A stretch of DNA of 64,000 bases. Origin: Oryzias latipes. Taxonomy: Eukaryota; Chordata; Actinopteri; Beloniformes; Adrianichthyidae. The stretch covers positions 19,934,604 through 19,998,603 of the forward strand of contig NC_019871.2 of NCBI RefSeq assembly GCF_002234675.1. Direction: 5' to 3'. The translations under genes and the position numbers were made by a program. The notes beneath the pieces were generated by a model that did not search any database, was not told where the DNA came from, and was given only the letters and a program-made list of their open reading frames with translations. Each line of letters starts with the position of its first letter. Position 1 is the first letter of the stretch. Below are positions 17,648 through 48,800 of this stretch, one piece after another.

Positions 17648-17679
17648 ATTTAGCATCTTGGATTTGGTAGTGATGTATA

Positions 17680-21657: not shown

Positions 21658-22665
21658 TCAGTGCCTGTCCTTGTGATGGTGGTGGTGATACGGCAGGAAC
21701 TTGTCTTTGGTTAAGGAGGACAGACAGTACTTTGTCACACCGCTAACAGCTGAAAAGAGGTAGAACAGAAGGTCTCAAACCTGAATCATGTCAGAATGTC
21801 AAGCAGTCTGAAACAAAAGCAGCGATCTAAAGAAGTAACCTGGATTGTTGTAGTCATAGATGAGGACATTGACTGCCTTGTTATTGAAGACGAAGTACTC
21901 CTGCACCAGGTGTAACTTATGGATGATGGGTATGTTCTTATGTAACTGAGGAGGCAAAGACATACAGTGAAAACAAGGACAGAAAAAGCCCCCAAAGAGT
22001 GCCCTCCTCAGCTGCACCCCCAGAATTTCACGTACCTTGCGCACATACACAAAAACACGGTTGTCCTTGTAGACCACATGCTCTACATCCACACCGCTCC
22101 TGAGCTGTGAAGACAACCATTCATCTAAAACAATCTTTCTCACACCTCAAGTCAAACAAAAGCGGCTGTAAAGACTTACACTACGCAAAGACTGTGGGAG
22201 AGGACAGAATCCAGTGGGGAGCTGGATCTCCAGGACCACCATGTTTGTGCATAATTGATGTCCACTGTACCTGGAATGGCATGTTACAGGTTGGTAAAAG
22301 ACCATGGACACATGACAGGAAAGTCAAAACCCTAAAGGAAGACTCTGGAAGGAAATGAACCTGAACGATGAGCAGCGCAAAGGAGAAATGTCAAGAACGT
22401 TATTGTAAACTGTAGTTTACTTCACTATTTCTGTGTTTACTTCACATATATGGATAAGTACATCAGATTCACCAAAACCTTAATCTTCCTAAATGATGCA
22501 CAATGTTTCAGCCTGAGGTTTTCAGAACCTTTTGATTACTTACAGGGAAATCATCTTCATGGTTAATTTGAGCCTTTTAGAGCGACTGGGGTGGAGCTCC
22601 AGCTGCACATCCACACTCAGAGAGGTGTCGGGGTTGGCCTTAACCACGTTGTACCAAAGGGAAAG
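21658..22665 (-). other. Copy A exons 31-35: receptor-binding domain and His-rich C-terminus
   Basis: Exons 22544-22665, 22180-22270, 22036-22104, 21840-21945, 21658-21749. The reading includes LSLWYNVVKANPDTSLSVDV, YSGHQLCTNMVVLEIQLPTG, VVYKDNRVFVYVRK and VNVLIYDYNNP. It ends in KDKFLPYHHHHHKDRH and a TGA (21,658-21,660). The lysine found in GFVPNVKSL of copy B is glutamine here (GFCPLPQSL). Confidence 0.88.
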
Positions 22666-25600
22666 CTACCAGAGAATAACACAAGCATGAAAATCGCTTC
22701 TAATCCTTTTTTGTTGCTAATTTTGTCATGAGATTAGTAAACGTTAAATGTTTTTAATCTGCAGAGACCATTGATTAAGTTGAAGCACAAAACATTTCCA
22801 TCCAAATGACATTTTCTCAGCATATGAACTGCCCTGTCAACAGCAAAAACAGATATTTATCACATGACAAATGTACACAAACCTGCACCAAAGCACAGGC
22901 CGTGCCCTTCATCTTCACACTGTATTTTCCATTTATGTCCTGCAGCACCATCTCCTGGTAGAGCAGTTTGTTGTGTGGAGTCAGCTGAAACACGACTTTG
23001 TCATTGGGAGACCAAATGCTGACTGTGCTCGACCACGTAGGAGTATACATGCACTTGGAGTAGAGGGCTATGGCCTTAACAGCCACCATTGTGTCCTGTA
23101 ACATACACATAATGTACATTTATAAAACTGGAAATGTTAAAGTTATCATCAGCTGATCCTGATCTCTCATAATTGCTTTCAAGTCTAGACTGTCAAACTG
23201 GAAATCACTGGTTTAGTGCACCAACCGAGGAGACCTCAAAGTGAGAGCCAATATATATATATATATATAAATTAAATATTTTACATATTTCTCAACTTTA
23301 TTCATCATTTGATGGTGTTTCCCTGTGTCAGGTCCAAGTTTCATAGCACCTGACCCATCCAGGTCTGTGGAGGGTCAGAGAGAGGAGAGACTACATCTGA
23401 GAACAACTTGGCTGCAAATAAAATGGCACCGGACATCATCAGCCGGAAGCAGAAATTATACAATTTACCCTAAACCTAATCCTAACCCTAATCATAGCTT
23501 TAAAAATGTTCAGAATTACAGAAGAAACCTTTAATAAAGGGGAAATTGGCAAAAACTGTATCTGTTAGGGTCACGGGACGTCATGAAAATGGAATGTACC
23601 ATTGTTGTACATTTTGTAAGTGTATCGTGAAGAATTTGTAAATATAATGGAATTTACATGGATTTATGACGAACAGGTCATTATGGTGTTTTTATGCCAT
23701 ATTCTAGTCATTAGTAAGGTTTGAGTACTGGTTCCTTACAGACCATGCACAAATATAGCATGCATGGGGTGTGCACACGAAACGTAAGTGCAGTTAGGAC
23801 GATGTCCACACAAACTACACTATGACTGTCTAATTCCTTAATTTCTAACAGCACACAAGGAGCACACTTATCATGTGAACAGCACTGACAGGCTCCTTGT
23901 ACAGTCCCAAAGATTTGAGGGGGATGAAAAAAATGAAAAATCCATACAACATGCCTACATCAACTTCAGCCGTACATGTAGCCTACTACGGCCTGTCGTA
24001 ATGAATACGTCCATAGAAAAAAAAAGCATGAACGGGTTCACCAAGCAGTCTATGATCTTGATATTTCGTGCCGGTCTCCTGCGTGCCCTGTACAGGTTTA
24101 GGCTGCAAACAGCCCATATCCACCTGTAAGGGCGGCTGGGACTAAGGCTTTATGGGCTGTGACAATTATCTGAGAAAGATCAACTTACTGTGCACTAATC
24201 TGTGCAGTGATTTAATTTAAATCACTGCACAGATTTAAAGTAAACCTTCAGCTTTACCTGAGTGGAAGAAAAGGTACTATAGTAGTTCAGATGCTCCACC
24301 AGCCACTTAAAGGTATGAGATGCAGATCTGAGGTCTCTAGGAGAACCTGTGACTGTCAGCTTAGCCAGGATCACGTAGGAGCTGATGAGCAAAGATGAAA
24401 AGACCGAAGTTTCTGTTTCCACGTGAGACCAGTAGATGACGTCTCCTAAAAAATGGCCAAGAACACACAGTTTGATGGTGAGTCAGAAGATGGCGATGAC
24501 CATTGAATCACTTCAACCGTTAGGAATTCTTACCTTCTTTGATTGCAATCGTGTCGAGGTAGTGCAGCAGTTGAGCACGGGGCTCCATGTCTTTCGCCAG
24601 CGTGAAGACCCATGCAGATATAGCTGCAGCAAAGGGGTTCTGAAGATCTTTGATGGACTCTTTAAGGCAGCACAGGCCCATCTTCACCACAGGGTCCTTT
24701 TACAGATCGAGACAGTGTTTAGATGAAACCCCTTGCTGTTTTTATCGCAACACTCTTTTTTTAATCCCCAGTAACAGTAAAAATAATTCTGTTTTACATG
24801 CAATGATTTCTGTTGCAAACTTTCAGACAACTGCAATAGAAAAATGTCAAAGATGAATATGGTACTTCATTTATGGCCCACTGGTCACAGATTGAGCAAA
24901 GAAACGTTTTAAAAAGACAGTTACATTTTTACCAACACAAAAAGCAAAATTATTAGAGAAAAAATAGGAATGTAGCATGACAATTATTGTAGACACTCAC
25001 ATCTGGAGAGACTCCCATCTCTAGAAAGGCAGCGAGGATGAAAGCATTGTAAGCCACTTCATCGATAGCACAGCCCTGCGGAGGCAAACAATGAAAAGGA
25101 CCGGCTCCAACAGCAGAAGGCGCTCATGTGCAGCCAAAAACATTGGATTTGCTTTCTGATTACCCCCTTTTTCTTGGTTAAATGTTTGCCCGACACTTTG
25201 AAGCAACCGTTTTCTCGCTGTTGGCATTCCAGCCACTTCCTGGCCTCATTAATGACATTTTCATCGATGAAGATATAAGGCTGAGCTTGGTACAAAGTCA
25301 CCAACACCAGAGCCGTGAGCCTGAGGAACGGAGACAAATCAAACCCACAGAGTCAACCTTCTGCATGCTCTGTGTGGTTTTATTTTACCATTACAAAACA
25401 CATTTTTAACAAACTGGTTCAGTTTAACAGAAAACAGATGTTTCAAATAAATATTTCCTTATCTTTCTGACGAAAAGAAGTTGGTAACTTATGCCTTGAA
25501 TAATTCTTCTTTTTTTGTAATTGTGGAACCAAATTAGAACTTAATAGAATTTACTTACTGAAATAGAGTTTTTAAGCAAACAAGCAAAAGGTTTTTTAGC

Positions 25601-28600
25601 AAACTGTTCATTTCTCTGAGCCTGCTGTAGGCTGTAAAAACTCAATTTATTTAATGCAAAAGGATCAAAATGTAAAACTGAAAGACCCACAAAGATGAAA
25701 ATTGGGTTATTGGTATTTTTAACAAATTCTTGTAAATTTTTCTAATGATGAATGACATAAATAAAGTGATTTGATCTTAAAATTACATTTCTGAGTATTT
25801 TTTTGTTCAATTTGTGTGAATCAGTTGTAAATGACTGAAAATAATAGATATAATAGACGTCATAATACAATATAATAATATAATATAATAATATAATAGA
25901 CGTCATTTACCTAGCCATTTACCAAAAGATAATATGAGTAGAGTCACAAATGTTTTGAAATAAAATCCATGAAACGCAGGAAATGTGTGCAGTTTTCAGG
26001 TAAAAAATGCAGAGAACATCACAGGTTTTGGATCTCTAAACACCAGACTTGACAGCAGTTAACACCACTGCTTAAAAGCTTGCAGATACTTCAGCCAGTG
26101 CAAAAAGACAAAGCCTGCACAGTGTTGTCTATCATGTTGTCTTATAGAAGATAAGAAGTCCTTTGCTCACCAAGAACTCCTTGGTCCTGATTCGAAGATG
26201 CTGAAGGCTCCGCTTTTGTCCTTGAAGGACAGCTGGGTCTGGTAAGCTGCAACAGCAATCCATACAAAGTTCAGTTTCACACTCACAGAATGACTGATGT
26301 CAAATAGGATTTGGGGTTTTACACCCCCAAGTTGTCCTAAACTCAGGGGATGGATTTAGAAAACGGAGAACCTTCGACGCTGCTGCCTGATCAGTTCAAA
26401 ACAGGAGCTGACAGGAACTTGCCTTTTTTGAGGAAGTTGACGGCCTCTTCCTCTTTCATGGAGTGCTCCAGCTGTTGAGTCTCCTTCAGGTAGTTGAGGA
26501 CATAAATGTTGATGGCCATTGACGCTATGTTCCAGTCCCCGTTTTCATAAGGAAAGTCAAGCGGTTCTCCCAGGTTGTGCACCAATCGGTTGAGGACATC
26601 GCCTGCGCAGAAGACAGGGGGGATCAAATGGGAATAGTGTTTGATTTTAAATGTAAAGGTCATTAGTGGAGATCATCTGATCCGTTTACCCATCGCTGCC
26701 ACTTTGATATTGAGAGATCCAGGAACCACAACTTCAGGCATCTCCACGTCCATTACTGCTCTCACAACCGGACCTTTTGAACAAACAGAAAACCGTTCAG
26801 CCCCAAATTTGGACTGCTCAGAACCACGCTGCACGTCAGATTACATGGAGCGAGGATAACTGATGACTTTCTGCTATTTTCAGGGTTCCTGATTAAAAAA
26901 ATAAAAGAGTGCATAAACTCACCTTTAGAACAGAGCAGCCAGCTTTCAGTTTGTCTTATTTCAATGCCTCCAGCCTTTGAAAAAATATAGGAAAATAAAT
27001 AAATAAATGAATAAACAAATAAAAACATAAATGATTATTAGTCCTTTTTCTTTAAAAGGTAATTTGAGCAATTTGCTTGGCGTTTGAGAAACTGTTTAGC
27101 TTTTGTACTTTAAGAAGAGACCAGAAAATCCCAGAAAAAAAGGGAGATGCTGCAGACTCACTGAAGAAAAAGCAGATGAGAAAAAGGAGGGAATAAAGAG
27201 AAAACAATTGGAAAGCCACGCGAGCAGACTGCTTCTGTGAACTTCAAGAGAAAGAACAGCTTCACTGCCTAAAGTTGAATTTCATCAGATACTAGATGTA
27301 TGGATATCTCGGTGTGTTTTTGAGCATGTGAGGGGACATTTTCACTCAAAGATTCAGTAAAAAAGAAAAGATGTGGAAACAATCTGGTCCTTCAGTCCAG
27401 GACTGCTGCACGTCATAACAAAACTTCAAGTGATATTAGCTCCACTTCATAATAAATGGGTTTCATCGGTCGTGTTTGTCTACATTCCCAACCTTAACAT
27501 CGATAGATCTCGTCTTCGAGCTGGTGTGGCCTTTTTCTGGAACAACCACGGGGTGACCCTCACAATACGTGTCAGCGTCCACAGCTGCAGCAGTTATCGT
27601 CATGGTCACAGTTCCTGAAACAGATCAGCAAACCTTTCATGAGTTTTGAAAAGCTTTCATCTCTGAAGAGAGGCAGAGCTCGCAGAAGGGATGGCGTAAA
27701 ACGGCCGAGCCTCACCCAAGACCGTTGGAGCTATGGTCCATCTGAGAGTTTTGCTCTTGCCACCACACAGGCAGAAAGTGCACAGGTGACTGGAAAGCTG
27801 TGTCACAGACAAATCCGAGGAATGAGCAGGACTCAGCTTGATCTGTTAAAAAAAAAAGATTTTTAAGCTCACCTTCATGAATTAAACAAACACAAGTATT
27901 TTTCTTTCTGTTAGTTTTTTTGTCATGCTGAATAAAACCTTGCATAACTGGAATAGTTCTCAGTCTTTTGGTGTTGCTTTGAAGAAAATTATGACCACGT
28001 TGAGACATTTAAATGATTTACTCTTTTGTGGCATAATTTTAAAGTTTGTAAAACTGTTATTGATATTTAAGGGGAGCTCTGATGCTCAAGACTACAATTT
28101 CTACAAAATGATCAGCTTGAATAAAGAACAGATTATAACGCGTTAATCCAGGTTTTTCATGACCCCCTTAAAGGTCTAAAACCTAACTAAGATTTAGGAA
28201 AAGCTTCTTTTGCAGGGAATTTGAGATTTGACCCAAAGACATGCAGACATGCTGATCCCAGACTTGACCTTAATGCAGCTCTGGAGGTTGTTGGTGACGG
28301 TGGCCTTCAGAACGAAGCTCTCTCCAAGGAAGACCGAGTCGGGCGTGGCGAGGTGGAGAGTGAAGGGCGGGGAGACGAAGAGAGTTTTCTGTTGAGCCAG
28401 GCCAAAGCCGTGACTGTTCAGGCAGAATGCATCTGTTTCCCAGTTGGTGACGACGCTTGGCACCGTGAGATGCACGCTCCGTTTCCCACTCCTGGAAACA
28501 GCAGAGATGGGCTTTATGTCTGGTGGGGGTTTCCAATTTACAAAAGCGCTCGTCCTGGCTGTTATCAGAGATTTCAGCAAGTAGAAGAACCTGTCCAGTC

Positions 28601-30307
28601 TTCAAATCTAAAGACATGGCTTGTATGTATGTATGTATGTATGTATGTATGTATGTATGTATGTATGTATGTATGTATGTATGTATGTATGTATGTATGT
28701 ATGTATGTATGTATGTATGTATGTATGTATGTATGTATGTATGTATGTATGTATGTATGTCATTGCATGTCAATATTTTACCACAGCTAGAACATGATTA
28801 TGCCAGAATTATTAGCATAAAAGCCAGCTTCAGCTCACATCTGTTGTCTCAAGGCAGCAAAAAAAATCAGACATTCAAACAACACAGAGTAGACATGACT
28901 AAAAAACACTAAAACAGATAAACTTTCAAATAAATGCACCCGAGGGTTCATTTTAAATGAGTCTACGTTGTTTTTAATCACTGCTCTAAAACAGTTTTAA
29001 ATCCTGTATAATTTTCAGTGTTTTCTGATGGGATTGGGTAGTGTGTTCCTATGTTACACCTCTGATGGAAACCACCATCACTTTAACCAAATTAAGTCTT
29101 TGTACTTCAAAGTCACCTCCATCCAAAGATACTAAATCTGTCAGCGTACCTCCATGACCCTTTTCTATATTTTACAATGACGTGTAAAATCTTTTATACA
29201 TTTGAAAAAAAAGCATCAAAAGTGATTTTTTTTTCGTCATAAAATTAGAATTCATCAAAGCAATAAAAAAGTTTTTCTCACCCCACATTGTACAGGTCAA
29301 AGATCCAGGGCACGGATTCAAGAGTGTGGATCGGCTCCAAGGGTTCAACATAAGGACAGGAGTACGGGATCGTTCCGGGCTCGGGAATGGCCGGAACCTC
29401 TCCTGATTTTGAGTCAAACTTCATGAAAATGTCTAAATCTTTCAAGGAAAAAAAGAAATATTTTAAGTGAGTGAAAAAAAACACCTTAAAAAAGAAAAAT
29501 GCTAATGAGGACAAAATAGTATTTCCCAAAACAACAGACCTCTGAAGTATTTTTTTCCTTTAAGCTTGAGGCATTTGGGATTCGAAATTTCTAGGTTTGA
29601 TAAAATTACCATCCCTTGTTTCTAAATAAAAGAAAACCAAATAGTTTAGAAGAGCAAAAATTGTTGTGTGGCATCTATTTGTCTGATACTTACTTCAAAA
29701 ACGGTGTATGCATATTCTCCCTCTTGATTGGTAAATCCTGAAATGCTTCTTTTGGGCCTCACATGCAGACAATTGGAAAAGTCTAAAAGCTCATGAGGGA
29801 TGGAGTCTGGTTTTTGGATGGGCAGAAGGTCAAAGATCTGAAAAAACATCATGAATATGTGTTTATAAACATGTATCCATTTTAATAAATAAGGGATAGA
29901 ATTATAATTGAATGGTAGGATGGAAGTGTTGCTGATATGAACAGAGAGGTGGTGGAAAATGTTTTTGGAATAAAAAGGTGAAAGTGAACGTTTTGGGCAC
30001 ATCCTTAACCTGATGAGCATCCAGAAGCGTTCCAGGCTTCCTGATGGTGGTTCTAAAATCGATGGTGCGCACGCCACACAGGGAATCTGGGTCCGCTTTC
30101 AGACTCAGTTTGACCTTTTCTCCTGGGATGGCGAAGCTTGGATGGTATGTGATTTTTACCTGAAGAATAAACACACAAAATGAATTTTTTTTACAAAAAA
30201 ATAAAAGACATGAGTAAAAGATACTTTTAGGAGATGGAAGTTGCAAAGTCTGTCAACCACTGAGTGAAAAGAGGATCAATTCCCTGAGAAGTAAAGCCCT
30301 GTGTGTG

Positions 30308-30372
<65 letters not shown>

Positions 30373-32074
30373 GATAACTGATAACTGGTAGTGCGTAGCT
30401 GTTTATTGCCCGGGTCTTATTTTTGCCATTGAGCTGGCTTCTCAGGACTTGCCTTACTCGTTGGAGGTATTTAGCTGTTGCAGCTTTCCTTGTTGCCTGC
30501 TCCAGGTTGCCATTTGCCTGTGGAATTCCAAGGTACTTGTAACTGTCCTCGATGTCTGTTATTGTTCCTTCTGGGAGTGAGACCCCTCCTGTGTGGACTA
30601 CCTTGCCTCTCTTTGTCACCATCCGGCTGCATTTCTCGAGCCCGAATGACATCCCAATGTCAGTACTGTAGATCCTGGTGGTGTGGATCAGGGAGTCAAT
30701 GTCACGCTCGCTCTTAGCATATAGCTTGATGTCATCCATGTAGAGGAGGTGACTGATGTTGGCCCCTTTTCTGAGTCAGTATCCATAGCCAGTCTTGTTG
30801 ATTATTTGGCTGAGGGGGTTCAGACCTATGCAGAACAGCAGTGGGGACAGAGCATCACCTTGGTATATCCCACATTTGATGGACACTTGTGCAAGTGGCT
30901 TCCCATTGGCTTCAAGGGTGGTTTTCCACAGCTTCATCGAGTTTCCTATGAAGGCCCTTAGAGTCCTGTTGATGTTGTACAGCTCCAAGCATTCAGTGAT
31001 CCATGTGTGTGGCATTGAGTCATAGGCCTTCTTGTAATCAATCCAGGCTGTGCACAGGTTGGTGTGCCGGGACTGGCAGTCTTGGGCGACTGTTCTGTCG
31101 ACCAGGAGTTGGTGTTTGGCTCCTCTGGAGTCTCTACCAATGCCCTTCTGTGTGTTACTCATGAATTGATCCATGTGCCTGTTTATCTTGGTTGCAATGA
31201 TGCCTGACATGAGCTTCCATGTTGTGGACAGACAGGTTATTGGCCGGTAGTTGGATGGGATTGCACCCTTTGAGGGATCCTTCTGGATCAGGATCGTTCG
31301 CCCTTCCGTTAGCCATTCGGGGTGAGTCCCATCTCTAAGCAGCTGGTTCATTTGTGCTGCCAGGCGCTCGTGGAGTGCGGTAAGCTTCTTTAGCCAGTAG
31401 GCATGTATCATGTCAGGGCCCGGTGCTGTCCAGTTCTTCATACCTGAGACTCTTTCTTGGATGTCAGCCACTGTGATGGTTACTGGATTCTGTTCAGGGA
31501 GGTTGCTATGTTCTTTTCTCAGAGAGACCAGCCACTGGGCATTGCTGTTATGTGCTGTCTCTTTCTCCCATATACTTTTCCAGTACTGTTCAGTTTCCAG
31601 CCTTGGTGGGTCTGCTCGGCTGTTTTGACCCTGCCACTGAGCGTACACTTTTGCAGGTTGAGTTGCGAAGAGCCTGTTTATTCGTCTGGCTTCATTGTCT
31701 CTTGTGTACCTCTTTAGGCGGCTGCTCAAGGCTAGGAGCCTTTGTTTGGCAGTTTCCAGTGCTTCAGGTATGGACATCTGGCTGTATCTCTTTGGTACTT
31801 GCTTTCTCATTGTACCTCTTTGAGCCTCTGTCAGCTTACTCACATCTTTCTGAGTTGCCTTGATTTTGGCCTCTAACCGTTGCTTCCATGGTGGGTATTG
31901 TTTTCTTCCATGGTTGCTCTTGTAGCCAAGCATTTCAAGGATCACTGCTGCTGAAGTGTAAACCAGTTCATTGGTTTCTGTGATGGTTGTGGTAGGAATT
32001 GCCCTCAATGCTTCATTCACAGTTTCCAGTAGACTTTCGGGCGGTACATCACTTAACCGTTGTAGCTGGTGTCC

Positions 32075-32148
<74 letters not shown>

Positions 32149-35100
32149 CGTGTGTGTGTATTTATTTATTTTTTGGCACTGGGGTTTACCGAACTGGTGT
32201 TTTACCAGGAGTTCCTGGTTTTCTGCCACTGACCTCATTCTTAAAACATTCCTCTGTAGGGAACTCAGCGCTGTGAGCCAAGAACTTCTCACAGGAGAGA
32301 ACAGTGTATGCCACCACCTGGATATACGGCGCCATGTCTGGAGTCACTTTCAAAGGGAAGTCAAATTCACCCTGAAGGACTGAAATGGTAAAAGAGTTTC
32401 AGTTTATAACCTGGTATTTTTAGCCTCATGACCTGATGAAAAATACACACCTTCACCAGTGTCCGGAATTTGGTGACTTCCTTGGACGACGATCTCTCCT
32501 CTTGAAAGGACCTAAGAGGAAAAAGACTTATTAGAACATTTGAATGTCTGCAATGGAGGAAGTCTTTGCAGCTCAAAAGCATTTTCAGTGGGATCAATAG
32601 TGACTTCAGTAACTCTGGATGGTTTTCACGGAATATGCAGTTGCCAATTCATGAATACATGGAGATAAAATGAGGCAAATAAAGTCAAACTTCATATCCT
32701 TACATAAATCTTTCTTCAACACTTATAGGACAAATAAACCCCAAACCTTTCACTTAAATGTAAAGCACTTCAGTGTAGGCACACGTGTGTCTTTGTGTTC
32801 CAGCTACAGAGCTCACCTGCAACAATCAGTCTGCAGCAAGAATCGCACACTTAAGGCAACTGTACACCTGCAAAGGCAACTGTACACCTGCAACAATCAC
32901 ACTTCAGCAACAACGGCACACAGACAAACACACACCTGCAATAATCACACTTTGACGACGGCCGCACACCTACCTACCACAAGTGCACACCTGGAACAAT
33001 CTCATTTCAGCAACAACAGCACACTTACAACAACTGCATACCTGTAACAATCACACTTCAGCAACAATCGCACACTTACAACTGCACATCTTCACACTTG
33101 GACAACAGTATTAAACCTACAACAAGTGCACACCTGCAACATTCCCATTTCAGCAAGAACCTTGCAACTACGACATCTGCAGCAGTTGCACATCAGAATC
33201 AAACACAGACCTGCAACAGCTACACATGTGTAAAAACAGCGCAATAGCAACAACTGCACATAAGCCACAACCACATACATGCAACAATCCCACAGCAACA
33301 TCAACCACATAACTGCAACAGCTACAGGGAAAACTCACCAGGAAAATAATTTCCACGATAGGACTGTATTCACTTTCCAAACTGTACTGGATGGTGATCT
33401 CCTCTGTCTTCCCACAACGAAGTGGTTTCTCCACCGTCCGCACTCTCAGGAAACCGCCAGTAGTGGGACCTGGACCAGACTCAGACACCGTGAGGGTTGC
33501 GGATGTAAAGAAAGGAGACTTATGTTTTTCATGTTCTCCGGGTTTGGTGGCGCAGACCTAAGGTTGTTGTCAAAAACAAACAACAATTTGAAAAACTGCA
33601 GATATTGGGCTTGCTTTGCACAAAAGATTTGGTATCTCACTTTTAGAATGATGTTTCCACTGAATCTGTTTGTGTCCAAAGAAAAATGAGCGACACCATT
33701 TTCATCCGTTTCCAGAATGTCCACCTCTTCTGGAAACAAACTCTCAGCCTTGAACAGGTACAGCTTAAGGTGAGCAACAGGTGAGCCACTGTAACTAACA
33801 GCTTGAACCTGGTGGAACAAAAGAACAGCGTCACTGAGAAAACAAAACAAACTGCACTGGGCACAACATGACTAAAAGAGACAGAAACAACAATTACCTT
33901 CCCGTTCAGAGGTTGTCCTTGGGTGTAGGTTTGGGGAGTTTCAAGAAAAGACAGTCGTCCAATGGAGTATGTTATATTTATTCTTTCCCACTTTGTGTGT
34001 GCGATACCTGAAAGGAAAATTCAATTTGGAAAAATGTAATGTCGAAAGAACAAAAAGAAATAAAAATAAAATTTACCACAAAGGGATCTGTCATTTTGTG
34101 TAGCTATGTTGTACTTTGTTTTTATGAGTTTTTACATGTGTAAAAAGAAAAACTGGTTCATGACTTACTTGTAAACTTGTCTCTGACAGTGGCGCTGACA
34201 TCCAGCACATCCAGAAAAGCCTCTGGGTCAATTCCAGTGAAAGATGAAACATCAAACGTCAAAGTGGCACAGCCAGATTCACACAACTGAGAGAACAAAA
34301 AGACACACAAGGTAAAACATTTAACGCTATAATTTATTTAATACTTCACAAGAACCGGTTCTGCTTGTGGACTTAAACAAGTTCAGTTTATTGATAAGAA
34401 AGTCCAACATCTTTCAGAAAGTTTCAGTCATTGCATTGTGTTTACCAGGATTATGGAAGTTTTTTACCAGAGGGGATGAAAACATCTGACATGTAGAAAC
34501 ATATGCTGTACATCCTCTGTGCCTCTCATCCATCAAACCAAATCACCATCACAAAATTTGATCATGTGGACTGATCAATCAACTCACAGATTGGGTAAAA
34601 CATCCTGCTTTCCATCTTCATCAAAACTCAAACATCACCATCCAATCAGTGATGTCCCATAATACCTACCTTTTCCAGTTTTTTATTTTGTTTAATGAAA
34701 TTACTTATGTAATGCTTCTTTTTTATTTTGTTTCTTTTTTCGAAATTACATTTTGTTTTTTTGAAATTACGTTTTGGTTTCTGAAATTTTGTGAAGATTT
34801 CTAAAATTTCAAATTTTTTTATTATTTGTTTTCCTTTCTTCATTATCATTGTGATCTTTAACTTGTTTTTGCATTGACTGATTTGCTGATGTGAAATGAA
34901 CTTCAGGGCCGTAGTTAAACATTTTGACCATGGTACCTGCTTTGTTTTGGTGGTGCACAGAGATGTTCTGTGGAGATGCTCGTAGTCTTTATAGGTGGAA
35001 GCAGAAGAACAATGAATGCGGCTTTTGACCGGCCGGCACACGGTTACCACGGCGCTTCCTCCCACCGGTTTACCACATTTGTACCTAAATCAGTGAAATC

Positions 35101-38100
35101 ATTAATCAAACATACAGGGCTTTCAGATGCAGACATTTAAAGAGACAAGCCTTACTTTGAACAAACTTCCACCTCAAAATGCTTCTGTCCAACACTGATC
35201 TCCTTTGGAATGGTTACTATAATGTCAAATTTGGGCAAAGCTGCAGACAAGAGAAACGTACTTCACCACGAACGTTCCACTGAAGAAAGCTGGAGAATCT
35301 GAAACACCATCACTTACAGAATTTTTGCACTTTGAAGCTCTGATAGAACCTGTCTTGTCCTGCTTTCAGTACTATCCTGTAGTATCCCTCAGAGGCCCCG
35401 GAGCTCAGCTGAAAGGAACGCTCCAGAATGCCCCTGCGAGGTGTTTGGTTCACCCACTGTTCAATGATGATGTTGTGAGGATCCTGTTAAGTAAGAACCA
35501 AAGACTCCGTTGTTCAAATATTCTCCCAAGTCTTCAACTCGTTTACTGAAAGTTCATTTAAACAAACAATTTGTCTGAATCCATAATGTTTATCCTGAAG
35601 CTGCCATAGATTCTTTTATTTCTATCTTTAACCCTGCAAAGCCCAAAACATCAAAGAACTGACAGATTTAAAAAAAAAATTTGGGGGGATTTAAGAGGGT
35701 TTTTCATTATATCCATAAAACATGGCAATATAATGTTTTAAGAGATATAGGCTAAATATAATCAATTGAGATGAGTGATTTGGTAAGTTGTTGTTCACCA
35801 AAATATCAGTTTAAACTTAAGAGGAAGAAAGCATCTTATTTGCCCACTGTCTCAAATGTGATGCACATGCTTTTTTAGTGATATAACTGTATTATAAACA
35901 ATTATAACGAGTTATCAACAAACCTTGCATTATTTAATTACAAGTAGTCATTTTAAAAATGAATAAAAATAGATGAGTCATTATCTCCATACTTTTTTGA
36001 AACTTAGCAGAACTTTTTCTGCCAAGTGTTTTTGAGATTTCATGGAGGACGCCATTTGGAAAGGAGCAGGAAAAGCCCTTCTATTGCCCACAGTGGAATG
36101 ATGATGGACTACAGGGAACGTGAAGGGGTGGGGCTCTGGGAATTGTAGTTTTTGATGGATTAAAACTAAATTTGACTGAATTTATTTCTCTGGTCAGGAG
36201 TTGTTCACCTTTTGGCGTATCACCACAGTAAATCAGCTTCTACTGAGTTGCACAGGTGGTTTGGCAGAGATGCAGCATGCCTTTCCTGACACAACCCTGT
36301 ATTCTACCCAAGCTGGAAAAACCGACACAGAGAAACCAAGACTTGGGCCCCCTTGTGGCTTCACAGTCAGGCAAGTAGCATGAAGGGTCCAACCCTGGTT
36401 TCCCACGTACCAGTCTTGCATGCAGCCAACTGAGCCATCCGGCCGCTTGTTTTCTCTGGTCAGGAGCTCAATATGTTAAGTATTGAAATTTTTAAAGCAA
36501 TAACCATCTAAAAAAATCAACCATCTCAAAAATAGGAGACCTCTAAGAAATCCAAATCCTCTCGAATAATGATGGTTCAGTCTAAGTGTAGATTTACAAT
36601 GCAGGTCAAAGTAAATTTGATTGTTCTTACCTTTATTAAAACAAATTCAAACTGAAAAGAAGAAGAAAAAGAAGAAGAGTTATTGTTTTTGTCGTTGCAG
36701 CTCGTTGCAGCTCATAACATCAGCATTTCTGAGGAAACTTTTCCAAAGTGAAAGTAGAATTAGGTGATTAGTGATCGTTGTTGCGGCTTCTTCACATTTG
36801 CAACTTTTCAGAGTAAAACCAAATCTTAACAAACACCAAAGCTGGAGACATTTCACCTATTGACTCTATATGAGAACTGAACTGAGTGACCCCCCCCCCC
36901 CCCCCCCCCCCCTCGGCTTTCCAAAGAGAAAGTACCTGCTGGCTCCAAGAAGCCAAAACCCCATAGACTTCTATAAATAAATAGCTATTACTCAGTCTTT
37001 ATATTTTTCAGAATAACCATTCTTGCTCTGATACCTTTTTTTAACATGTTATCGATAATCCTCTTTTTTTCTTCTTTTTTCTGTAGTTCAAATTATGAAC
37101 TGAACAATCAGTTGCCTCAATAAAATTTAGTGGTCTGGCATTGAATGTTGATTGACAGATTTAGTGCAGCCCTCTTTCAAGTGGTCGGAGTGTGGCCCTT
37201 CTACAAGCTCACTCCTGATTGGCCAGAGTGGCTGCCATAGAAAGGTCGACTCAGACCGACTTGAACCGCTTACTGCTTACTGACGACATCTGGCTTCAAC
37301 ATGGTGGTGTCCGTATTGCGAAAAAGTTGCAACTGAATGACTTGATTTTGTTGGAGCCGGAAATAAACAATTTTCTATGGACAATGTCACACTCAATCAG
37401 TCCAGACTCAATGGTTTCACCAAATGAAAACTAGACATCATTAGAAGAAGAAGAAGAATCTGTGTAGAAGAAGATTCTGAGAGTCCACCTCACCTTCTCA
37501 TCAACGGGCTTTAACTCTTTGTTCAACGTGACCGCTCTGAAACGCACTGAGAGACAATGAAAGACATTAATTCCAAGTTTCTACTGTAAAAAGTAGGAAC
37601 ACTGTTTTAAACATGTTCTGGGCTTCATTTCATCTCCTCTCAGGATCTTAACCCAAAGGTTCATCTAAAAATCTCCTGAAAACTGGATTTAACAAAGAGG
37701 GAAGCTTTGAAGCTTTTCTTGTGTTTCTGCTAGATGGAGCATCAGACCTTCAGGATCTGAGAATGGAAGGTCTCAGAGGCTGCTGCAACAACAAACATTC
37801 AACTCAACATCTTCTCTGGGACAATAACACACTAGCATACAGTGAGGCTAAACATTTGGGAGAACATCTGAGTGCTGCAGTCAGGAAACACAAGTACAGA
37901 CAGAAAAATAACGGCATCTTCATCCATCCAATCATCATCATCAGGCCATATCTACCTGTCTGTCCAGGATTATAGATGGCTGTGTCTGTTTGGATGAAGG
38001 TTTTGGGTTTGAAAGTCTTGATGAAAACCTTTTTGACCTCCTTTGAGTAAACCGTCTGTCCTTCTACTGTCACCTCAAACAGCTGGATTTCACATTTTTC

Positions 38101-38632
38101 CACGAGAGGAACCTAAAAAATCAGACGTTTTAGACTGAAAATCCTCTTACTTCATTACAAAACAAATCTGAATGAGAAAATCCACAGGTTCAATACTTTT
38201 AGGGATTAAAAACAGATCAAAAATAATACGAGCTCACATGAAATGAAAAACATTTGATGAAGCTGTTCCTGGTTCCTTTCCTTAACAGGCTCTTGCTACC
38301 GGTTTCAGATTTCAAATAGACGCTCATGATCACAAACTCGCTGGGCTCCTGAAGAACTGCACAGAACTGAGTCTTGGTTCCAGCTTGAAGAATGGCAGGA
38401 ACTGTAACCAGGAAATACCTGCAGGCAAATTTAAACACGCAGGATAAAGTTTGAGTCTGGAAAATGACACCATGAATGAATGCTCAGACACCTACGTATC
38501 ACATGATTCTGCTGATGAGGATGACTGCGATGATGACGAAGATGAGCCTGAAACCTGATCTTGAACCACTAACATCCCAAAAAAGAGGAGACAACGCGTC
38601 CATGTCCACATGGGAATCCCAGAAAGAGCCAT
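21658..38632 (-). CDS. a2m-like: Alpha-2-macroglobulin-like protein, copy A, thioester-less, 1,480 aa in 35 exons
   Basis: This is a secreted protein of the alpha-2-macroglobulin family, whose members trap proteases after bait-region cleavage. I joined 35 coding exons to 4,443 nt with no stop or frameshift; human A2M is 1,474 aa. Most exon lengths match the human gene exactly (53, 21, 85, 110, 127, 122, 52, 84, 157, 75, 91, 69). The order is signal peptide, N-terminal macroglobulin domains, bait region, CUB and thioester domain, receptor-binding domain (listed separately with exon coordinates). The thioester motif is destroyed (PYENGDWN). The open frame and good splice sites argue against a pseudogene. 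The gene is in tandem with copy B upstream. It could be described as ovostatin-like or A2ML1-like; orthology is not resolved. Confidence 0.92.
23575..24165 (-). repeat. Dispersed repeat family D, copy 2 (inverted)
   Basis: The reverse complement aligns with 9,935-10,375 and 60,985-61,825: GCCTTAGTCCCAGCCGCCCT at its start and TTCTTCACGATACACTTACA further on. It sits in the copy A intron between exons 29 and 30. Confidence 0.55.
25680..25910 (+). repeat. M2 repeat fragment and ATAAT-rich tract
   Basis: AAAGACCCACAAAGATGAAA starts a fragment of repeat family M2 (25,680-25,810). It is followed by an (ATAAT)n-like AT tract at 25,865-25,903, bracketed by two copies of ATAATAGACGTCAT. It lies in a copy A intron. 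Confidence 0.45.
26690..28491 (-). other. Copy A exons 19-23: post-bait MG7/CUB region
   Basis: Exons 28269-28491, 27716-27842, 27493-27614, 26923-26974, 26690-26773. The reading includes SVHLTVPSVVTNWETDAFCL, GESFVLKATVTNNLQSCIK, LCTFCLCGGKSKTLRWTI and GSLNIKVAAM. The last four exon lengths (127, 122, 52, 84) equal those of copy B and of human A2M. Confidence 0.88.
28622..28762 (+). repeat. (ATGT)n microsatellite, about 34 units
   Basis: A near-perfect ATGT tetranucleotide array lies in the copy A intron between exons 18 and 19. ORFs across it (Met-Tyr-Val-Cys periodicity) are artefacts. Confidence 0.95.
29282..30159 (-). other. Copy A exons 15-18, including the bait region
   Basis: Exons 30010-30159, 29694-29837, 29540-29621, 29282-29438. 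Exon 15 encodes FAIPGEKVKLSLKADPDSLC, exon 16 IFDLLPIQKPDSIP … VRPKRSISG, exon 17 a short KQGMVILSNLEISNPKCLK segment, and exon 18 the bait proper. The bait runs from about DLDIFMKFDSKSGEV through PAIPEPGTIPYSCPYVEP to the conserved WIFDLYNVG. It is acidic and proline-rich with few basic residues, and contains a cysteine. It shows no alignable similarity to the bait of copy B. Confidence 0.85.
30310..30371. repeat. (TA)n microsatellite, distal edge of the inserted LINE
   Basis: An almost pure TA tract abuts the point where the reverse transcriptase reading frame of the inserted element is cut off. Confidence 0.9.
30372..32082 (-). mobile_element. Truncated non-LTR retrotransposon, R4/Dong/Rex6-like reverse transcriptase
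   Basis: The minus strand encodes a reverse transcriptase fragment: NWTAPGPDMIHAYWLKKL, SNYRPITCLSTTWKLMSGII, WIDYKKAYDSMPHTWITECL, GIYQGDALSPLLFCIGLNPL, then YMDDIKLYAKSE with the catalytic DD. One in-frame TGA (30,776-30,778) separates two parts that share a frame. The fragment stops just after YALPVISY where a TA tract begins, so the C-terminal endonuclease part is missing. It lies in copy A intron 14. The clade call is by remembered motif wording and is uncertain. Confidence 0.75.
32083..32140. repeat. (TA)n/(TG)n microsatellite, proximal edge of the inserted LINE
   Basis: A TA tract flowing into TGTGTGTG bounds the 5' side of the LINE fragment. Confidence 0.9.
32234..35483 (-). other. 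Copy A exons 6-14: macroglobulin domains before the bait region
   Basis: Exons 35318-35483, 35156-35240, 34937-35084, 34169-34286, 33898-34007, 33641-33808, 33339-33557, 32451-32511, 32234-32379. The translation reads DPHNIIIEQWVNQTP … SLPKFDIIVTIPKEI … LCESGCATLTFDVSSFTG … ITYSIGRLSFLETPQTYTQG … VQAVSYSGSPVAHLKLY … EFDFPLKVTPDMAPYIQVV, all family-typical. Phases are consistent throughout. The exon 13 donor (GAAG/GTGTGT) was chosen by analogy with copy B. Confidence 0.9.
32810..33325. repeat. Degenerate CA-rich minisatellite
   Basis: Repeated variants of CACACCTGCAACAATCACAC with TTCAGCAACAAC spacers run through about 500 bp of copy A intron 12. Units vary in length (about 25-60 bp), so it is an old, irregular array. 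It ends 14 bp before exon 12. Confidence 0.75.
36262..36450 (-). mobile_element. tRNA-derived SINE family S, copy 1 (reverse)
   Basis: On the minus strand it starts CGGCCGGATGGCTCAGTTGG, a tRNA-like A-box region, followed by a B-box-like stretch and the tail block also seen at 62,240-62,275 (CCTTTCCTGACACAACCCTG on the plus strand). It lies in copy A intron 5. Confidence 0.6.
36631..38632 (-). other. Copy A exons 1-5: signal peptide, Ser-rich linker, first MG domain
   Basis: Exons 38496-38632, 38238-38418, 37956-38112, 37494-37546, 36631-36651. The start ATG (38,630-38,632) opens a hydrophobic leader (RCLLFFGMLVVQDQVSG) followed by a serine run (11 Ser within about 15 residues) before the conserved YFLVTVPAIL. 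The fifth exon is a 21-nt microexon (FEFVLIK), conserved in length with copy B and with mammals. The first-exon donor is GTAGGT. Confidence 0.88.
36850..37430. repeat. MITE-like family M1, full-length-looking copy with a 23-C run
   Basis: The left end is TATTGACTCTATATGAGAAC then TGAACTGAGTGAC; the right end (CAATCAGTCCAGACTCAATGG) is its inverted partner. A 23-C homopolymer (36,890-36,912) sits just inside the left end. The right half matches 62,925-63,050. It lies in the intron between copy A exons 4 and 5. Confidence 0.6.
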
Positions 38633-41875: not shown

Positions 41876-42003
41876 GCCTTAGCTCATATTCCAGCATTTC
41901 ACAGTGCTCACAGTTTTTGCCTGGCTGTTACTGACCCCTTTTTTCTGTCCCTGGTCAAGGGTTGGTCTGTTTGTTTCTGATCTGTTTTTTCTGCCTCTGA
42001 GTT

Positions 42004-44621: not shown

Positions 44622-45832
44622 TCAATTTTGAAAAGTATATTCGGCCTCAGCTCGTTCACCTTCAAAGAGAAAATAGGACAAGTTCAAATCAAATTCCACA
44701 TTAAGTTGTCCCTTAATTTAAAAACAATACTTAAAATGAATCATTTATTAGTTTATTGATCAGATATTTTAGGAGTAAAGTGATTTACTTGGCTGGTAAT
44801 AGTCGTAGAGTGTGACCACAGCAGGTTTGAGGTTCTGCACGACGTGCTGCTGTTCGAGTACCAGGCTGTAGTTCATGGGTAGCTCCTTCACCAGCTGTAC
44901 ACACAACCCCAACACAGATTACAAACTAGGCAACAAACTCAACTATGGTTGTGGTAGAATTATTCTGAAGCCTCTTCTTACCTCTCGAAGGTAAACCAAA
45001 ACATGGCCGTCTTTGTGCTCGACACGATCCACGAGGGGTGCTTTCTTGATCTGCAAAGAGCAAAACCTGAGACTTTTTATTTCTGTCCTTAGAAGCACCA
45101 AAGCTTTCTCATTCAAAATATAAAAAGAAACCAGGAGAAACAAAAATTGAACTTACACTGTCTAAAGACTTCACGTTCGGTACAAATCCAGACAGTATTG
45201 TGATATCTATGATCACCATGTTTGTGTTTGTCTCTTTCCCAGTGTATCTGCAAAGAACAAGAAATTATTTGTATCAACCAACATTTCTAGAGCACTTTTT
45301 TCATAATTTGCAGTTTTTATGTTATACAAATACAACATTAAACAGAACAGATATGATTTTTGAAATAGAGGAAAAATAAGTTTCTAACAAAGGAGAAGGT
45401 TTGAATAAAACTACTATTTCGATAAACTTTTTTTTAAAATAGTATTTTTGATAAAAAGATACATTTAAAAACATCTAATTAAAATGAGACACTTTAGTTT
45501 TAGTTTGTGAAGCTCCACAAAGTCAGATCCTCAGGGAGGCTTCACAAGAGAAGGCTTGGACCTGACCATCACCTGAGGATCAGAACTCAGAACATTAGCT
45601 CTGAAAATAAACTTCCACTTCTGCCTGCACTCATTCCAAAACAACACAGTCTAAAAGTCACCAATAGAAACCATGATCTGCGTTTGTGTGTATGATGTGT
45701 GTTGAATCTTTACAGGGAGTTGAGCTTCAGAATCACTCTGGGTTTCTTGGTTGATAAGTCAGCTTCCGGTAGAACCTTTATACTCAGGGTGTTTGTCTCT
45801 TGGGGGGTGGGGATGTTGTAAAAGAGAGAAAT
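44622..45832 (-). other. Copy B exons 31-35: receptor-binding domain
   Basis: Exons 45714-45832, 45157-45247, 44982-45050, 44789-44894, 44621-44659 (stop 44,622-44,624). The reading includes [50 protein letters not shown] and [15 protein letters not shown] lysine matching one of the two receptor-contact lysines of human A2M is retained (NVKSL). The last reading is AEAEYTFQN then stop, where human A2M has AEYNAPC and further residues. Confidence 0.85.
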
Positions 45833-48800
45833 CTGCAAAAGAGAACACAAAATAGTCAATTCTTTTAAAGATCAGTTGTGTCAATATTTATTTGGCCTTG
45901 GAAGAACTGGTGGACCATCCTCTGCTATAAAAAAAACTGCTGCTTCTTTTCTTTCCTCTTTGATCCTATGTGTCTTTTTAAAGGGGAAATATAAAAATTG
46001 AATCTGATTTGAGTTGTTTCTTCAAAAGTCTCTTGTTTTCAAATACTTGTGAGATCAGACAAATAACTTATCAGTTTTTAGATAAGTCATGTTAATTGTT
46101 GGAACTAATCAAATGCTGATGCAGATTCATCAAAACCTCCTCTTTGCTTTATTCTGCTCTTTAGCTATTTTCGGCAAATTGTTGAGGTGGGCGGAGCAAA
46201 CCCATGCTCATCCTACTTTAAACTGCATTCACACCTAATGTGACATCCATGGCAGGGGTGTCCAGTTTCCGTGTTAGGTCAATGTTCAGAGCTCCGTGTT
46301 TTGGGTGTCGCAGCCTAGTGTGTCCAGGTGTGTTGTAGTGCAACGTGGCACAATATTTTGCAGAGTTCAAATATCTGAGCTAGGGCTAATGGTATGTTCA
46401 CACCGGGCTCAGAAACGCGTGCTCAAGTGGTCTCTTTCAATGACAAGTCTGTGTAAACACGCGAAAATGCGTGTTTCTGGCTTAAAAAATGCACATTTCA
46501 GTATTCAGAACACTTGTTCTTATGTGTCTGTATGCAAGTTTTTAAGTGAGTTTCGGGCTCTATTGAATTAACTTGAAAGGTAAAAGCAGCTGATCTTTGA
46601 GCTTTGACCTGTGATGTGTTGATGACTTAATGATATGTTTCTTATTTGCGTGGAGACCTCTGAGGGGTGTCAGTGCTAACCACTACACCACCCTGCAGTC
46701 CCAACCCTTTCTTCCTAAAATTATTTTAAAGGCAAAAACCTCTTTTTTTTCATCAGGAGCAAACCAGACCCACATGATGCTATCTCACATGATGCTATCT
46801 TGCTGATGCTGTCACTGACCTGCACTGAAGCACACGCAGATCCTTTCACCTCAAGGTTGTAGCTTCCTGTCATTTTCTGCAGCACGCTCTCCTGATAAAG
46901 AAGCTTATTGTCTGGATTTACGTGGAACGTCAGCTGGCCGCTAGGAGACTGAAGAGTGACCGTGCTTGAACCGCCTGGAGTGAAAACCAGACTGGAGTAC
47001 AGGGCCAACGCCTGGAGGGCCACCACTGTGTCCTTCAAACACAGGACACATTAGAGATCACAGCAACATCTGTGCTGACTCATGAAAAGACATTTTCTTC
47101 AGAATCATTTTCTCACTGAAGAAAACAAACTTTGTAAACTTTAAACCTTTATCTCGATAAAACCAAAGTGCAATACCTGAGTGGAGGAGAATCCTCCGTA
47201 GTAGTTTTGCTGTCCTGACAACCACCTGACAATGCTTGAGGCGTAGCCCAGATCTTCAGAGGTGGGAGATGCTCCTAGTTTGGCCATTAGCACATAGGAG
47301 GTAATCTCCACTGAGAGGGAATCAGACTTCTCGGTTCCTGTTTGTGACCAGTGCAGGAACCCCCCTAAAGGAAGGAAACATTTCACATTACCACGTGTTG
47401 TGGGGTTTGTGTGGTGACGGCATGAATGCACAAAGTCCAAATTTCCCAGATCAGTTCACCTGGTTTCAACCCCCATACAGGTTTGTGTGACTAAGGTAGT
47501 CAAATTACATTTGCTCTCCACTAAAATGACTTGATTCGGCATTAATATTGTCACTATGCTAAACACTAATCTTTAATCCAACTATAATTTATGTGTTTTG
47601 TCAGCCATCATTTTTATTGTGAGAAAAAAATACTCATTAATCTTAGCAAAAACTACTTCTAAGTGGAGTAACGACTAAAGAGTAAAAGATTATCCCTCTA
47701 AAAAATGGAAGCCCAACACAAAGACCTCTGTGAGTTTAAATGAAGGGACAAAAAACGTCAAAACAGCACTGTTTATATATATTTGGACGTTTGGACATAA
47801 CCGACCTTCTCTTATTGCAGAGTTGTCAAGCTGCTTCAGAAGATGATCACGTGTCTCCATGTCTTCTGCCAGCGTGAAGACATAAGCTAGAAGAGCTGTA
47901 GTGTAGGTGTTGCTGAGGTCGCTCAGGGACGACTTGAGGCACAACAGGCTTTTATTCAAAACATGGTCCTTTTCCATTGAATAAGAAAAAAATAAATATT
48001 ACTGTTAAGTCTTCATTATATGTAAAGAAGATGCCTTGAATGTCTTACATACATTTGGGGAAATTTTCATCTCTAAAAAGGCAGCAGTGATATAAGCACT
48101 CAGAGTAACTTCATCAGACACTCCACCCTGCAGAGATTAAAAGGAAGAGAAAGACATTATAGTACAGAATCCTAGATAAGGATCCTAGGAAGATGGATGG
48201 ATGGTACAGAATCCTCAGATTTGACTCTCAGAGCGAGTGTTTCTCTAAACTTGGTTTGCAGGCGGACATTTTTTTTATTTGGGGGTTCTTTAATTATATT
48301 TTGGGTTTAGCTACAAACTGAAGTTTTTATTAAACCTCGATAGCTTTAATTTGACAGGAAGAGTTTCCAAAAGCAATAGATATTTTTGCTTATTTGTTAA
48401 AACCGACAACAATTGAATGTATGGCTGGAACATTGACTGTATCAGAGAACTGGACTGAGAGACGTCAACCATAGAAAACACTCTGTTAGAGTGTTTGACA
48501 GAGTTTGTTGGAAGGTCACACCCCTTACACTTGAAAGCAGGTTACACCAAATCTTTCAATCAATTAAATGTTGGACATGGAGGCCAGCAGGCTCCACCTA
48601 TTTTTACTGAGATAACTGATTGGTCAGTTTATAACTTTAATAACTTGCACTACAGATGATCAAGAATGCTTATTCTGACAAATAGAATGACTGAGTAATA
48701 GCTGTTTATTTCTCTAAAAATGTTTAGAGGATTTTAGCTTCCTTGAGTCAGCAGGTACTTCCTGTTTGGAATTCTAGAGGGGAGGGGTCACTCAGTTCAG

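What the first reader, a model, noticed from the sequence alone, without database searches (positions are those of the whole stretch)
26423..26602. Macroglobulin copy A has lost its thioester but stays fully open
The thioester exon reads PYENGDWN where the family has PYGCGEQN. Both bond-forming residues are replaced (Cys to Asn at about 991, Gln to Trp at about 994), while sequence on both sides is well conserved. I could join all 35 exons (1,480 codons) without a stop, frameshift or broken splice site. A decayed gene would not look like this. The family precedent for a thioester-free inhibitor is chicken ovostatin. I infer a non-covalent protease trap or a new binding role.
Basis: partly seen in the sequence, partly recalled or inferred. 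Interest (0 to 1): 0.78.

Follow-up and report, generated by a model that had tools for sequence, protein, structure and literature searches.

The report
Fish macroglobulin without its protease warhead
A fish gene of the alpha-2-macroglobulin family is complete and shows signs of selection to keep it, yet it has lost both the reactive bond that grabs proteases and residues of the switch that springs the trap, so it probably does a job other than trapping proteases.

Summary
On the minus strand (38632-21658) 35 exons join into 1,480 codons with no stop. Exon 24 (26602-26423) reads PYENGDWN; the 13 other A2M/CD109-type thioester exons read in this genome have GCGEQ. One donor is GC, but copy B shares it. 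The gene is not decaying neutrally: a codon model gives omega 0.44 on the A branch, and omega = 1 is rejected (2dL 15.1). Of 18 cysteines invariant in copy B, human A2M and human A2ML1, A keeps 17; the one lost is the thioester Cys.

MG1-MG6 exons evolve near background (omega 0.31 vs 0.26); the MG7-CUB-TE-RBD exons are accelerated (0.49 vs 0.18). Residues that hold and respond to the bait-region plug (R732, F735, D897 of human A2M) are H, E and S. Copy A also gained 14 cysteines over copy B.

I favour a protease-uncoupled, probably collapsed, disulfide-linked carrier or holdase. That function is inferred; expression and orthologues could not be tested. New variant of a known kind.

The parts
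21658..38632 (-). Copy A, thioester-free macroglobulin gene, 35 exons, 1,480 codons
   Evidence: spliced model; Pfam MG2, MG3, MG4, A2M_BRD, A2M, TED and A2M_recep all over cut-off
26423..26602 (-). Exon 24, thioester exon, PYENGDWN in place of [10 protein letters not shown] splice donor follows
   Evidence: copy B has the same GC donor
26541..26543 (-). Codon AAC, Asn991 in place of the thioester Cys (human A2M Cys972)
26532..26534 (-). Codon TGG, Trp994 in place of the thioester Gln (human A2M Gln975)
25176..25178 (-). Thr1104 at the position of human A2M Asn1088 (His in A2ML1 and C3)
   Evidence: alignment, coordinates; role of the residue from PMC7864068 passages
29317..29328 (-). Bait-region C-terminal plug in exon 18: His753 and Glu756 aligned with R732 and F735 of human A2M
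   Evidence: role from PMC9352918
27520..27522 (-). Ser916 aligned with MG7 Asp897, the partner of R732 after cleavage
   Evidence: role from PMC9352918
35009..35011 (-). Gained Cys292 in the MG3 loop that carries intersubunit Cys278 in human A2M (loop 267-289)
   Evidence: aligned with C278 by phmmer but with residue 272 by MAFFT; loop limits from PMC8167298 passage
33552..33554 (-). Gained Cys450 in the MG4 loop that carries intersubunit Cys431 in human A2M (loop 423-443)
   Evidence: aligned with residue 426, five columns from C431
29356..29358 (-). Gained Cys743 inside the bait region
44622..63902 (-). Copy B, thioester-intact paralogue, exons 5-35 (exons 1-4 are not in the window)
   Evidence: exons 2 and 3 found just beyond the window end
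51005..51181 (-). Copy B exon 24 with PYGCGEQN, followed by the same GC donor

Best explanation
Copy A is a macroglobulin that has been uncoupled from proteolysis. It keeps the MG-ring scaffold and the conserved disulfide cysteines under selection. It has lost (1) the covalent warhead (Cys and Gln of the thioester and the neighbouring Asn/His position), (2) residues of the plug that keeps the molecule armed until the bait is cut (R732 to H, F735 to E, and the MG7 partner D897 to S), and (3) many sites conserved in copy B and the human proteins in the TE and receptor-binding domains. Most likely mechanism, inferred: the protein holds the armed native state poorly or not at all and is made in a collapsed form, linked and stiffened by extra disulfides, and works by non-covalent binding of ligands (carrier, decoy or holdase). 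Shown here: sequence losses, open gene, omega below 1, module-specific acceleration, cysteine gain. Inferred: the collapsed state, the extra disulfides, the ligand-binding role, secretion and expression.
For: Open 35-exon gene. Of exons 5-34, 9 of 30 differ in length from copy B, all 9 by multiples of 3. Under simulated neutral decay, with assumed indel and splice-site rates, the chance of an intact gene is about 2e-6 at 0.02 substitutions per site. Codon model on 846 codons of five paralogues: omega_A 0.44 vs 0.22, omega_A = 1 rejected with 2dL 15.1; E2-15 0.31 vs 0.26 (2dL 0.2; omega 1 rejected with 6.5); E19-34 0.49 vs 0.18 (2dL 21.0; omega 1 rejected with 8.9); omega_A against background is similar on three topologies. 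Sites identical in human A2M and A2ML1: in the ring A alone lost 24 and B alone 19; in linker-bait, MG7, CUBn, TE and RBD A alone lost 97 and B alone 17. Of 18 Cys invariant in copy B and the two human proteins, 17 kept, the one lost being the thioester Cys. 14 Cys only in A against 1 only in B; the same count is 3 and 2 between the two human proteins, and 3 and 0 for each of them against B. Mutating F735 in human A2M markedly raises the collapsed form, which surplus trypsin does not cut in its bait (PMC9352918 section 6). Oxidised disulfide dimers of human A2M lose protease capture but gain holdase activity and bind cytokines (PMC13069473 passages).
Against: R732A in human A2M has only a slight effect, and some native protein that still responds forms even in the plug mutants. 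The plug alignment is by sequence only; with a two-residue gap the two sites would read L and V instead of H and E. An omega that is raised but below 1 is also what relaxed constraint on a gene losing its use would give. The two loop cysteines are not exactly aligned with C278 and C431 by MAFFT, and 14 random positions would hit both loops 5% of the time. Copy B also differs from human at the linker residue M607 (K; A has R) and at the receptor lysines. The ring is less conserved overall, so the test has less power there; against the fish paralogues A alone lost 24 and B alone 13 even in E2-15. In the codon model copy B or the C2 copy as foreground also departs from one omega in E19-34, downwards (2dL 12.0 and 14.8 on topology 1), and the C2 branch is saturated. 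The excess of lost invariant sites in TE over the rest of the C-terminal part is not significant (33 of 87 against 9 of 39, p = 0.15), and with Xenopus as outgroup the relative-rate test outside TE is not either (chi2 0.4). No ligand, transcript or protein was seen.
Confidence: 0.5

Rival explanations
1. Ovostatin-like, non-covalent steric protease trap: copy A forms a tetramer that still collapses round a protease after bait cleavage, without the thioester.
For: Thioester-lacking chicken ovostatin and C5 still change conformation on cleavage, and tetramers trap without covalent bonds (PMC8267569 and PMC8167298 passages). A bait-like stretch and the A2M_BRD domain are present. Copy A has a Cys in each of the two loops that make the intersubunit disulfide of human A2M, copy B in neither. 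Plug mutants of human A2M can still respond in part.
Against: Plug residues strictly conserved in all human family members (Arg730 and Phe733 of A2ML1) are replaced, and so is D897. The linker-bait, TE and RBD parts are the fast ones (A/B branch ratios 4.0, 5.6 and 8.2 against 1.4 in the ring).
Confidence: 0.2
2. A gene that recently lost its use: relaxed selection, still open by chance, on the way to a pseudogene.
For: Copy A is fast (relative-rate chi2 16 to 39 over the C-terminal part, three outgroups) and omega on its branch is about twice background. A neighbouring copy D in the same cluster is a frameshifted fragment.
Against: omega = 1 rejected overall and in both modules. All 9 exon length changes are multiples of 3. 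The 17 structural Cys are all kept while other invariant sites are kept at 201 of 323. The ring is not significantly accelerated. An unconstrained gene would probably be broken by 0.01-0.02 substitutions per site, whereas the motif and several other key sites have each had time to change.
Confidence: 0.2
3. A signalling or complement-like function comparable to C5, another thioester-free member, in which proteolysis releases or exposes a ligand.
For: C5 shows that thioester-free members can respond to cleavage (PMC8267569 passage).
Against: Pfam lists no anaphylatoxin or C345C domain in copy A at E 0.001, the best solved relatives are A2ML1 and A2M, and plug residues are lost.
Confidence: 0.05
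4. Assembly or sequencing error at the thioester exon.
For: None found.
Against: At least 6 nucleotide changes in one motif, one extra in-frame codon in the same exon, and further losses at key sites in exons 18, 21, 26 and 29.
Confidence: 0.01

Closest known systems
Chicken ovostatin (ovomacroglobulin)
   Same: Alpha-macroglobulin without a thioester (stated in PMC8267569, passage)
   Different: Ovostatin is a working tetrameric inhibitor that changes conformation on cleavage; copy A has lost plug residues as well.
Human A2M
   Same: Domain order and structural cysteines; 631 bits to chain 6tav_A
   Different: Copy A lacks the thioester, the plug residues and D897, and has 14 cysteines absent from human A2M
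Human A2ML1
   Same: Best solved relative, 657 bits
   Different: A2ML1 is a monomer that depends on its thioester to inhibit (PMC9156758 passages)
Complement C5
   Same: Family member without a thioester
   Different: No anaphylatoxin or C345C domain in copy A; weaker match, 113 bits
Copies B, C, E and F of the same cluster
   Same: Same exon order where found; copy A shares 46-49% identity with B and C in ring and machine exons
   Different: All four carry GCGEQ; omega in the MG7-TE-RBD exons is lower outside the A branch (copy F not in the model)

Membership tests
Alpha-2-macroglobulin superfamily | MG domains, bait-region domain, TE and receptor-binding domain in order | tested here: met
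   7 macroglobulin families over their Pfam cut-offs, in order; an eighth listed family, SVA, overlaps the A2M region
Alpha-2-macroglobulin superfamily | 35-exon organisation as in a fish A2M-type gene | tested here: met
   35 exons in copy A; exons 5-34 have the phases of copy B; hilsa A2M 35 exons (PMC6650032 passages)
Thioester-containing protein | CGEQ thioester motif | tested here: not met
   NGDW
Thioester-containing protein | Asn or His near the thioester (A2M N1088, A2ML1 H1084) | tested here: not met
   Thr1104
Protease-responsive macroglobulin | Bait C-terminal plug R732/F735 and MG7 D897 | tested here: not met
   H753, E756, S916 in the alignment; copy B has R, F, D. The response itself was not testable.
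Ovostatin-type thioester-free inhibitor | No thioester | tested here: met
Ovostatin-type thioester-free inhibitor | Disulfide-linked dimers assembled into a tetramer | tested here: inconclusive
   Cys292 and Cys450 lie in the two loops but are not exactly aligned with C278 and C431; assembly not testable
Ovostatin-type thioester-free inhibitor | Inhibits proteases after bait cleavage | not testable with these tools
   needs protein
LRP1 ligand | Two lysines of the receptor-binding domain (recalled; K1370 and K1374 of mature human A2M) | tested here: not met
   P1387 and R1391; copy B also lacks them (V, D)
Pseudogene | Stops, frameshifts or broken splice sites | tested here: not met
   GC donor shared with copy B
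Pseudogene | dN/dS of 1 on the branch | tested here: not met
   omega_A 0.44, 2dL 15.1 against 1; a branch average cannot exclude a very recent loss of use
Complement C5 | Anaphylatoxin and C345C domains | tested here: not met
   no such Pfam match at E 0.001

The most novel reading that the evidence does not exclude
A vertebrate macroglobulin that has lost warhead and trigger residues together, while its ring is kept under ordinary selection and its cysteines have risen to 32 where copy B has 19 in the aligned part: a permanently collapsed, disulfide-armoured macroglobulin selected for its binding or chaperone side-activity, that is, the second function of A2M split off into its own gene.
Probability: 0.35. 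Interest if true: 0.72.

Novelty: new variant of a known kind. Interest (0 to 1): 0.52.

Why it matters
Human A2M both traps proteases and carries or chaperones other proteins, and the two are hard to separate in one molecule. A natural paralogue with the trap removed and the scaffold kept would let the second role be tested directly, by knockout and pull-down, in a laboratory fish. It would also be a natural test of the plug-in-channel model of macroglobulin activation.

Tried and rejected
A mutually exclusive exon with an intact thioester inside gene A was looked for: the only CGEQ-encoding stretch in the window is copy B's. The GC donor as a sign of decay was rejected, since copy B shares it. 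A simple A-B dN/dS was run first, but dS is near saturation (pS 0.66, pN 0.36), so paralogues C, E and a C2 copy were added. The ovostatin-like trap was my first reading and was demoted after the plug and D897 were aligned. Clustering of losses inside the TE domain is only suggestive (p = 0.15 for TE against the rest, 0.05 for 984-1001 within TE). Paper searches aimed at a thioester-free fish macroglobulin or at ovostatin: one search found no paper, and no title or abstract start in the other listings names one. I saw passages of 9 papers (one of them, PMC9352918, also one whole section); PMC7768046 and the other listed papers were not opened. Most subscription papers are not held, and the carp study by Mutsuro and others that I recall was not seen. 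Left out of the codon model: copies D (fragment) and F, and exons not found by tblastn in all five sequences (20 of the 33 exons 2-34 used); this favours conserved exons and leaves out the bait exons 16-18. The branching order of A, B and C/E is not resolved (one search support 55-85; prefers different topologies for the two exon sets). A search of the genome with copy A's own TE region was tried seven times and never answered, so more distant thioester-free copies were looked for only through the Pfam TE model, whose counts are lower bounds.

Full report
Observation. I rebuilt the gene exon by exon, placing exon ends by eye: 35 exons from 38632 to 21658, 4,443 nt with the stop, 1,480 residues, no internal stop. 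All 34 acceptors are AG; 33 of 34 donors are GT. The remaining donor, after exon 24, is GC in a strong context, and copy B has the same donor there. Pfam sees a complete macroglobulin; the TE domain scores 212 bits against 339 in copy B.

Context. Copy B (exons 5-35 in the window) is an intact-looking paralogue with PYGCGEQN. In a tree of the C-terminal part, A and B group apart from human A2M, human A2ML1 and Xenopus A2Moo with support 100, unrooted. When the genome search answered it placed the window on contig C13 of a 734-Mb assembly in 25 contigs; from size and contig number I recall medaka, Oryzias latipes, but no call names it. The cluster continues with four plus-strand copies, which I call C, D (exons 19-30 only, with a frameshift in exon 24), E and F. 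I read the thioester motif in all 22 matches that begin within the first 24 positions of the TE profile. Sorting them by motif and similarity, not by a tree, 14 are A2M/CD109-type: 13 have GCGEQ (the fragment D included) and copy A does not. The other 8 look C3/C4-like: GCGEQ in 4, GCLEQ in 2, GCVEQ in 1, GCGES in 1. Two further loci on C9 (L043, L044) gave no thioester exon and were not classified; they could be other thioester-free members such as C5.

Is it decaying? Four lines say no. Exon length differences from copy B, in 9 of 30 exons, are all multiples of three. A neutral simulation gives 3.3 stops on average at 0.02 substitutions per site, and an intact-gene chance near 2e-6 once assumed frameshift and splice-site rates are added; the thioester motif itself carries 4 replaced residues that need at least 6 changes. 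Of 18 cysteines invariant in copy B, human A2M and human A2ML1, 17 are kept and the one lost is the thioester Cys; other invariant sites are kept at 201 of 323. A codon model on 846 codons of A, B, C, E and one C2 copy gives omega_A 0.44 against 0.22, and omega_A = 1 is rejected (2dL 15.1, p = 1e-4).

Where did it change? The acceleration is modular. In exons 2-15 (MG1 to MG6) omega_A is 0.31 and background 0.26 (2dL 0.2). In exons 19-34 it is 0.49 against 0.18 (2dL 21.0), and 1 is still rejected (2dL 8.9). Three topologies give the same contrast; as controls, copy B and the C2 copy as foreground also depart from a single omega in exons 19-34, but downwards. Protein branch ratios A/B are 1.4 in the ring, 4.0 in linker and bait, 4.5 in MG7 and CUBn, 5.6 in TE, 2.8 in CUBc and 8.2 in RBD; 0 of 100 bootstrap pairs reverse ring and machine. 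At sites identical in human A2M and A2ML1, A alone lost 24 and B alone 19 in the ring, but 97 and 17 in the machine (Fisher p = 2e-4). Against fish paralogues the figures are 24 and 13 in exons 2-15, and 87 and 7 in exons 19-34, so the ring is not wholly untouched.

What exactly was lost? Besides Cys and Gln: the Asn/His position (T1104), both glycines of NYYGGF (S1244 and T1245), the plug residues R732 and F735 (H753, E756), and D897 (S916). The human work read here says that the plug fills an MG2-MG3-linker channel in the native state, that its retraction triggers collapse, that F735A markedly raises the collapsed form and R732A only slightly, that part of each mutant still forms native protein that responds, and that the collapsed form is not cut in its bait by surplus trypsin (PMC9352918, section 6 read; PMC9156758, passages). 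Other passages state that tetramers trap without covalent bonds while monomers and the PZP dimer do not, and that thioester-lacking chicken ovostatin and C5 still respond to cleavage (PMC8267569).

What was gained? 14 cysteines over copy B, with one lost; each human protein against copy B shows 3 and 0, and the two human proteins against each other 3 and 2. Two of the 14 sit in the two loops that form the human intersubunit disulfide (loop limits from PMC8167298), with a 5% chance for random placement. One is inside the bait region. The paper on the trigger notes that a bait cut within a disulfide loop does not trigger collapse.

Reading. Losing the warhead alone would leave an ovostatin-like trap. 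Losing warhead and plug residues together, with the ring held near background constraint and cysteines added, points to a molecule no longer meant to respond to proteases. That step is inference. Relaxed selection on a gene going out of use and an ovostatin-like trap are the main rivals, at 0.2 each.

Limits. No transcript, no orthologue, no structure. The alignment at the plug is sequence-based; with a two-residue gap the two sites would read L and V. The branch average mixes time before and after the thioester loss. Only exons found in all five paralogues (20 of 33) entered the codon model.

Noticed in passing
L040 (G000:C1:27874047-27874838): A C3-like copy reads GCGES in place of GCGEQ, so its thioester Gln is Ser. 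Four other C3-like copies have GCGEQ.
   Followed up: no
L043 and L044 (G000:C9): Two TE-domain matches on C9 for which no thioester exon was found in the stretches fetched; possibly C5 or other thioester-free members.
   Followed up: no
G000:C13 about 20.01-20.18 Mb (L009-L026): Four further macroglobulin copies on the plus strand; in copy D only exons 19-30 were found and exon 24 has a frameshift, yet it still spells GCGEQ.
   Followed up: partly
L027-L031 (G000:C2:10.008-10.132 Mb): Five macroglobulin copies with near-identical thioester exons, probably a recent tandem expansion.
   Followed up: no
26422-26421, 51004-51003 and 58980-58979, minus strand: GC-AG introns: both copies share one after exon 24, and copy B has a second after exon 9.
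   Followed up: yes
30230-32161 minus: Two open pieces of a reverse transcriptase in intron 14 of copy A, same strand as the gene, separated by a stop.
   Followed up: no
41339-42300 plus: Chromodomain and reverse-transcriptase pieces between copies A and B.
   Followed up: no
10669-11004 and 12720-13187 minus: One piece matches leucine-rich repeats, the other tubulin-specific chaperone E (E 1e-5); likely exons of one TBCE-like gene.
   Followed up: partly
21661-21696 minus: Copy A ends in a histidine-rich tail, LPYHHHHHKDRH, absent from copy B.
   Followed up: no
16437-17326 and 53726-54624; 7238-8580 and 15426-17666: Long dispersed repeats, mostly 70-100% alike in translated comparison, likely a mobile element family.
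   Followed up: no
copy A protein: Only 2 N-glycosylation sequons in 1,480 residues, against 7 in the 1,308 residues of copy B.
   Followed up: no
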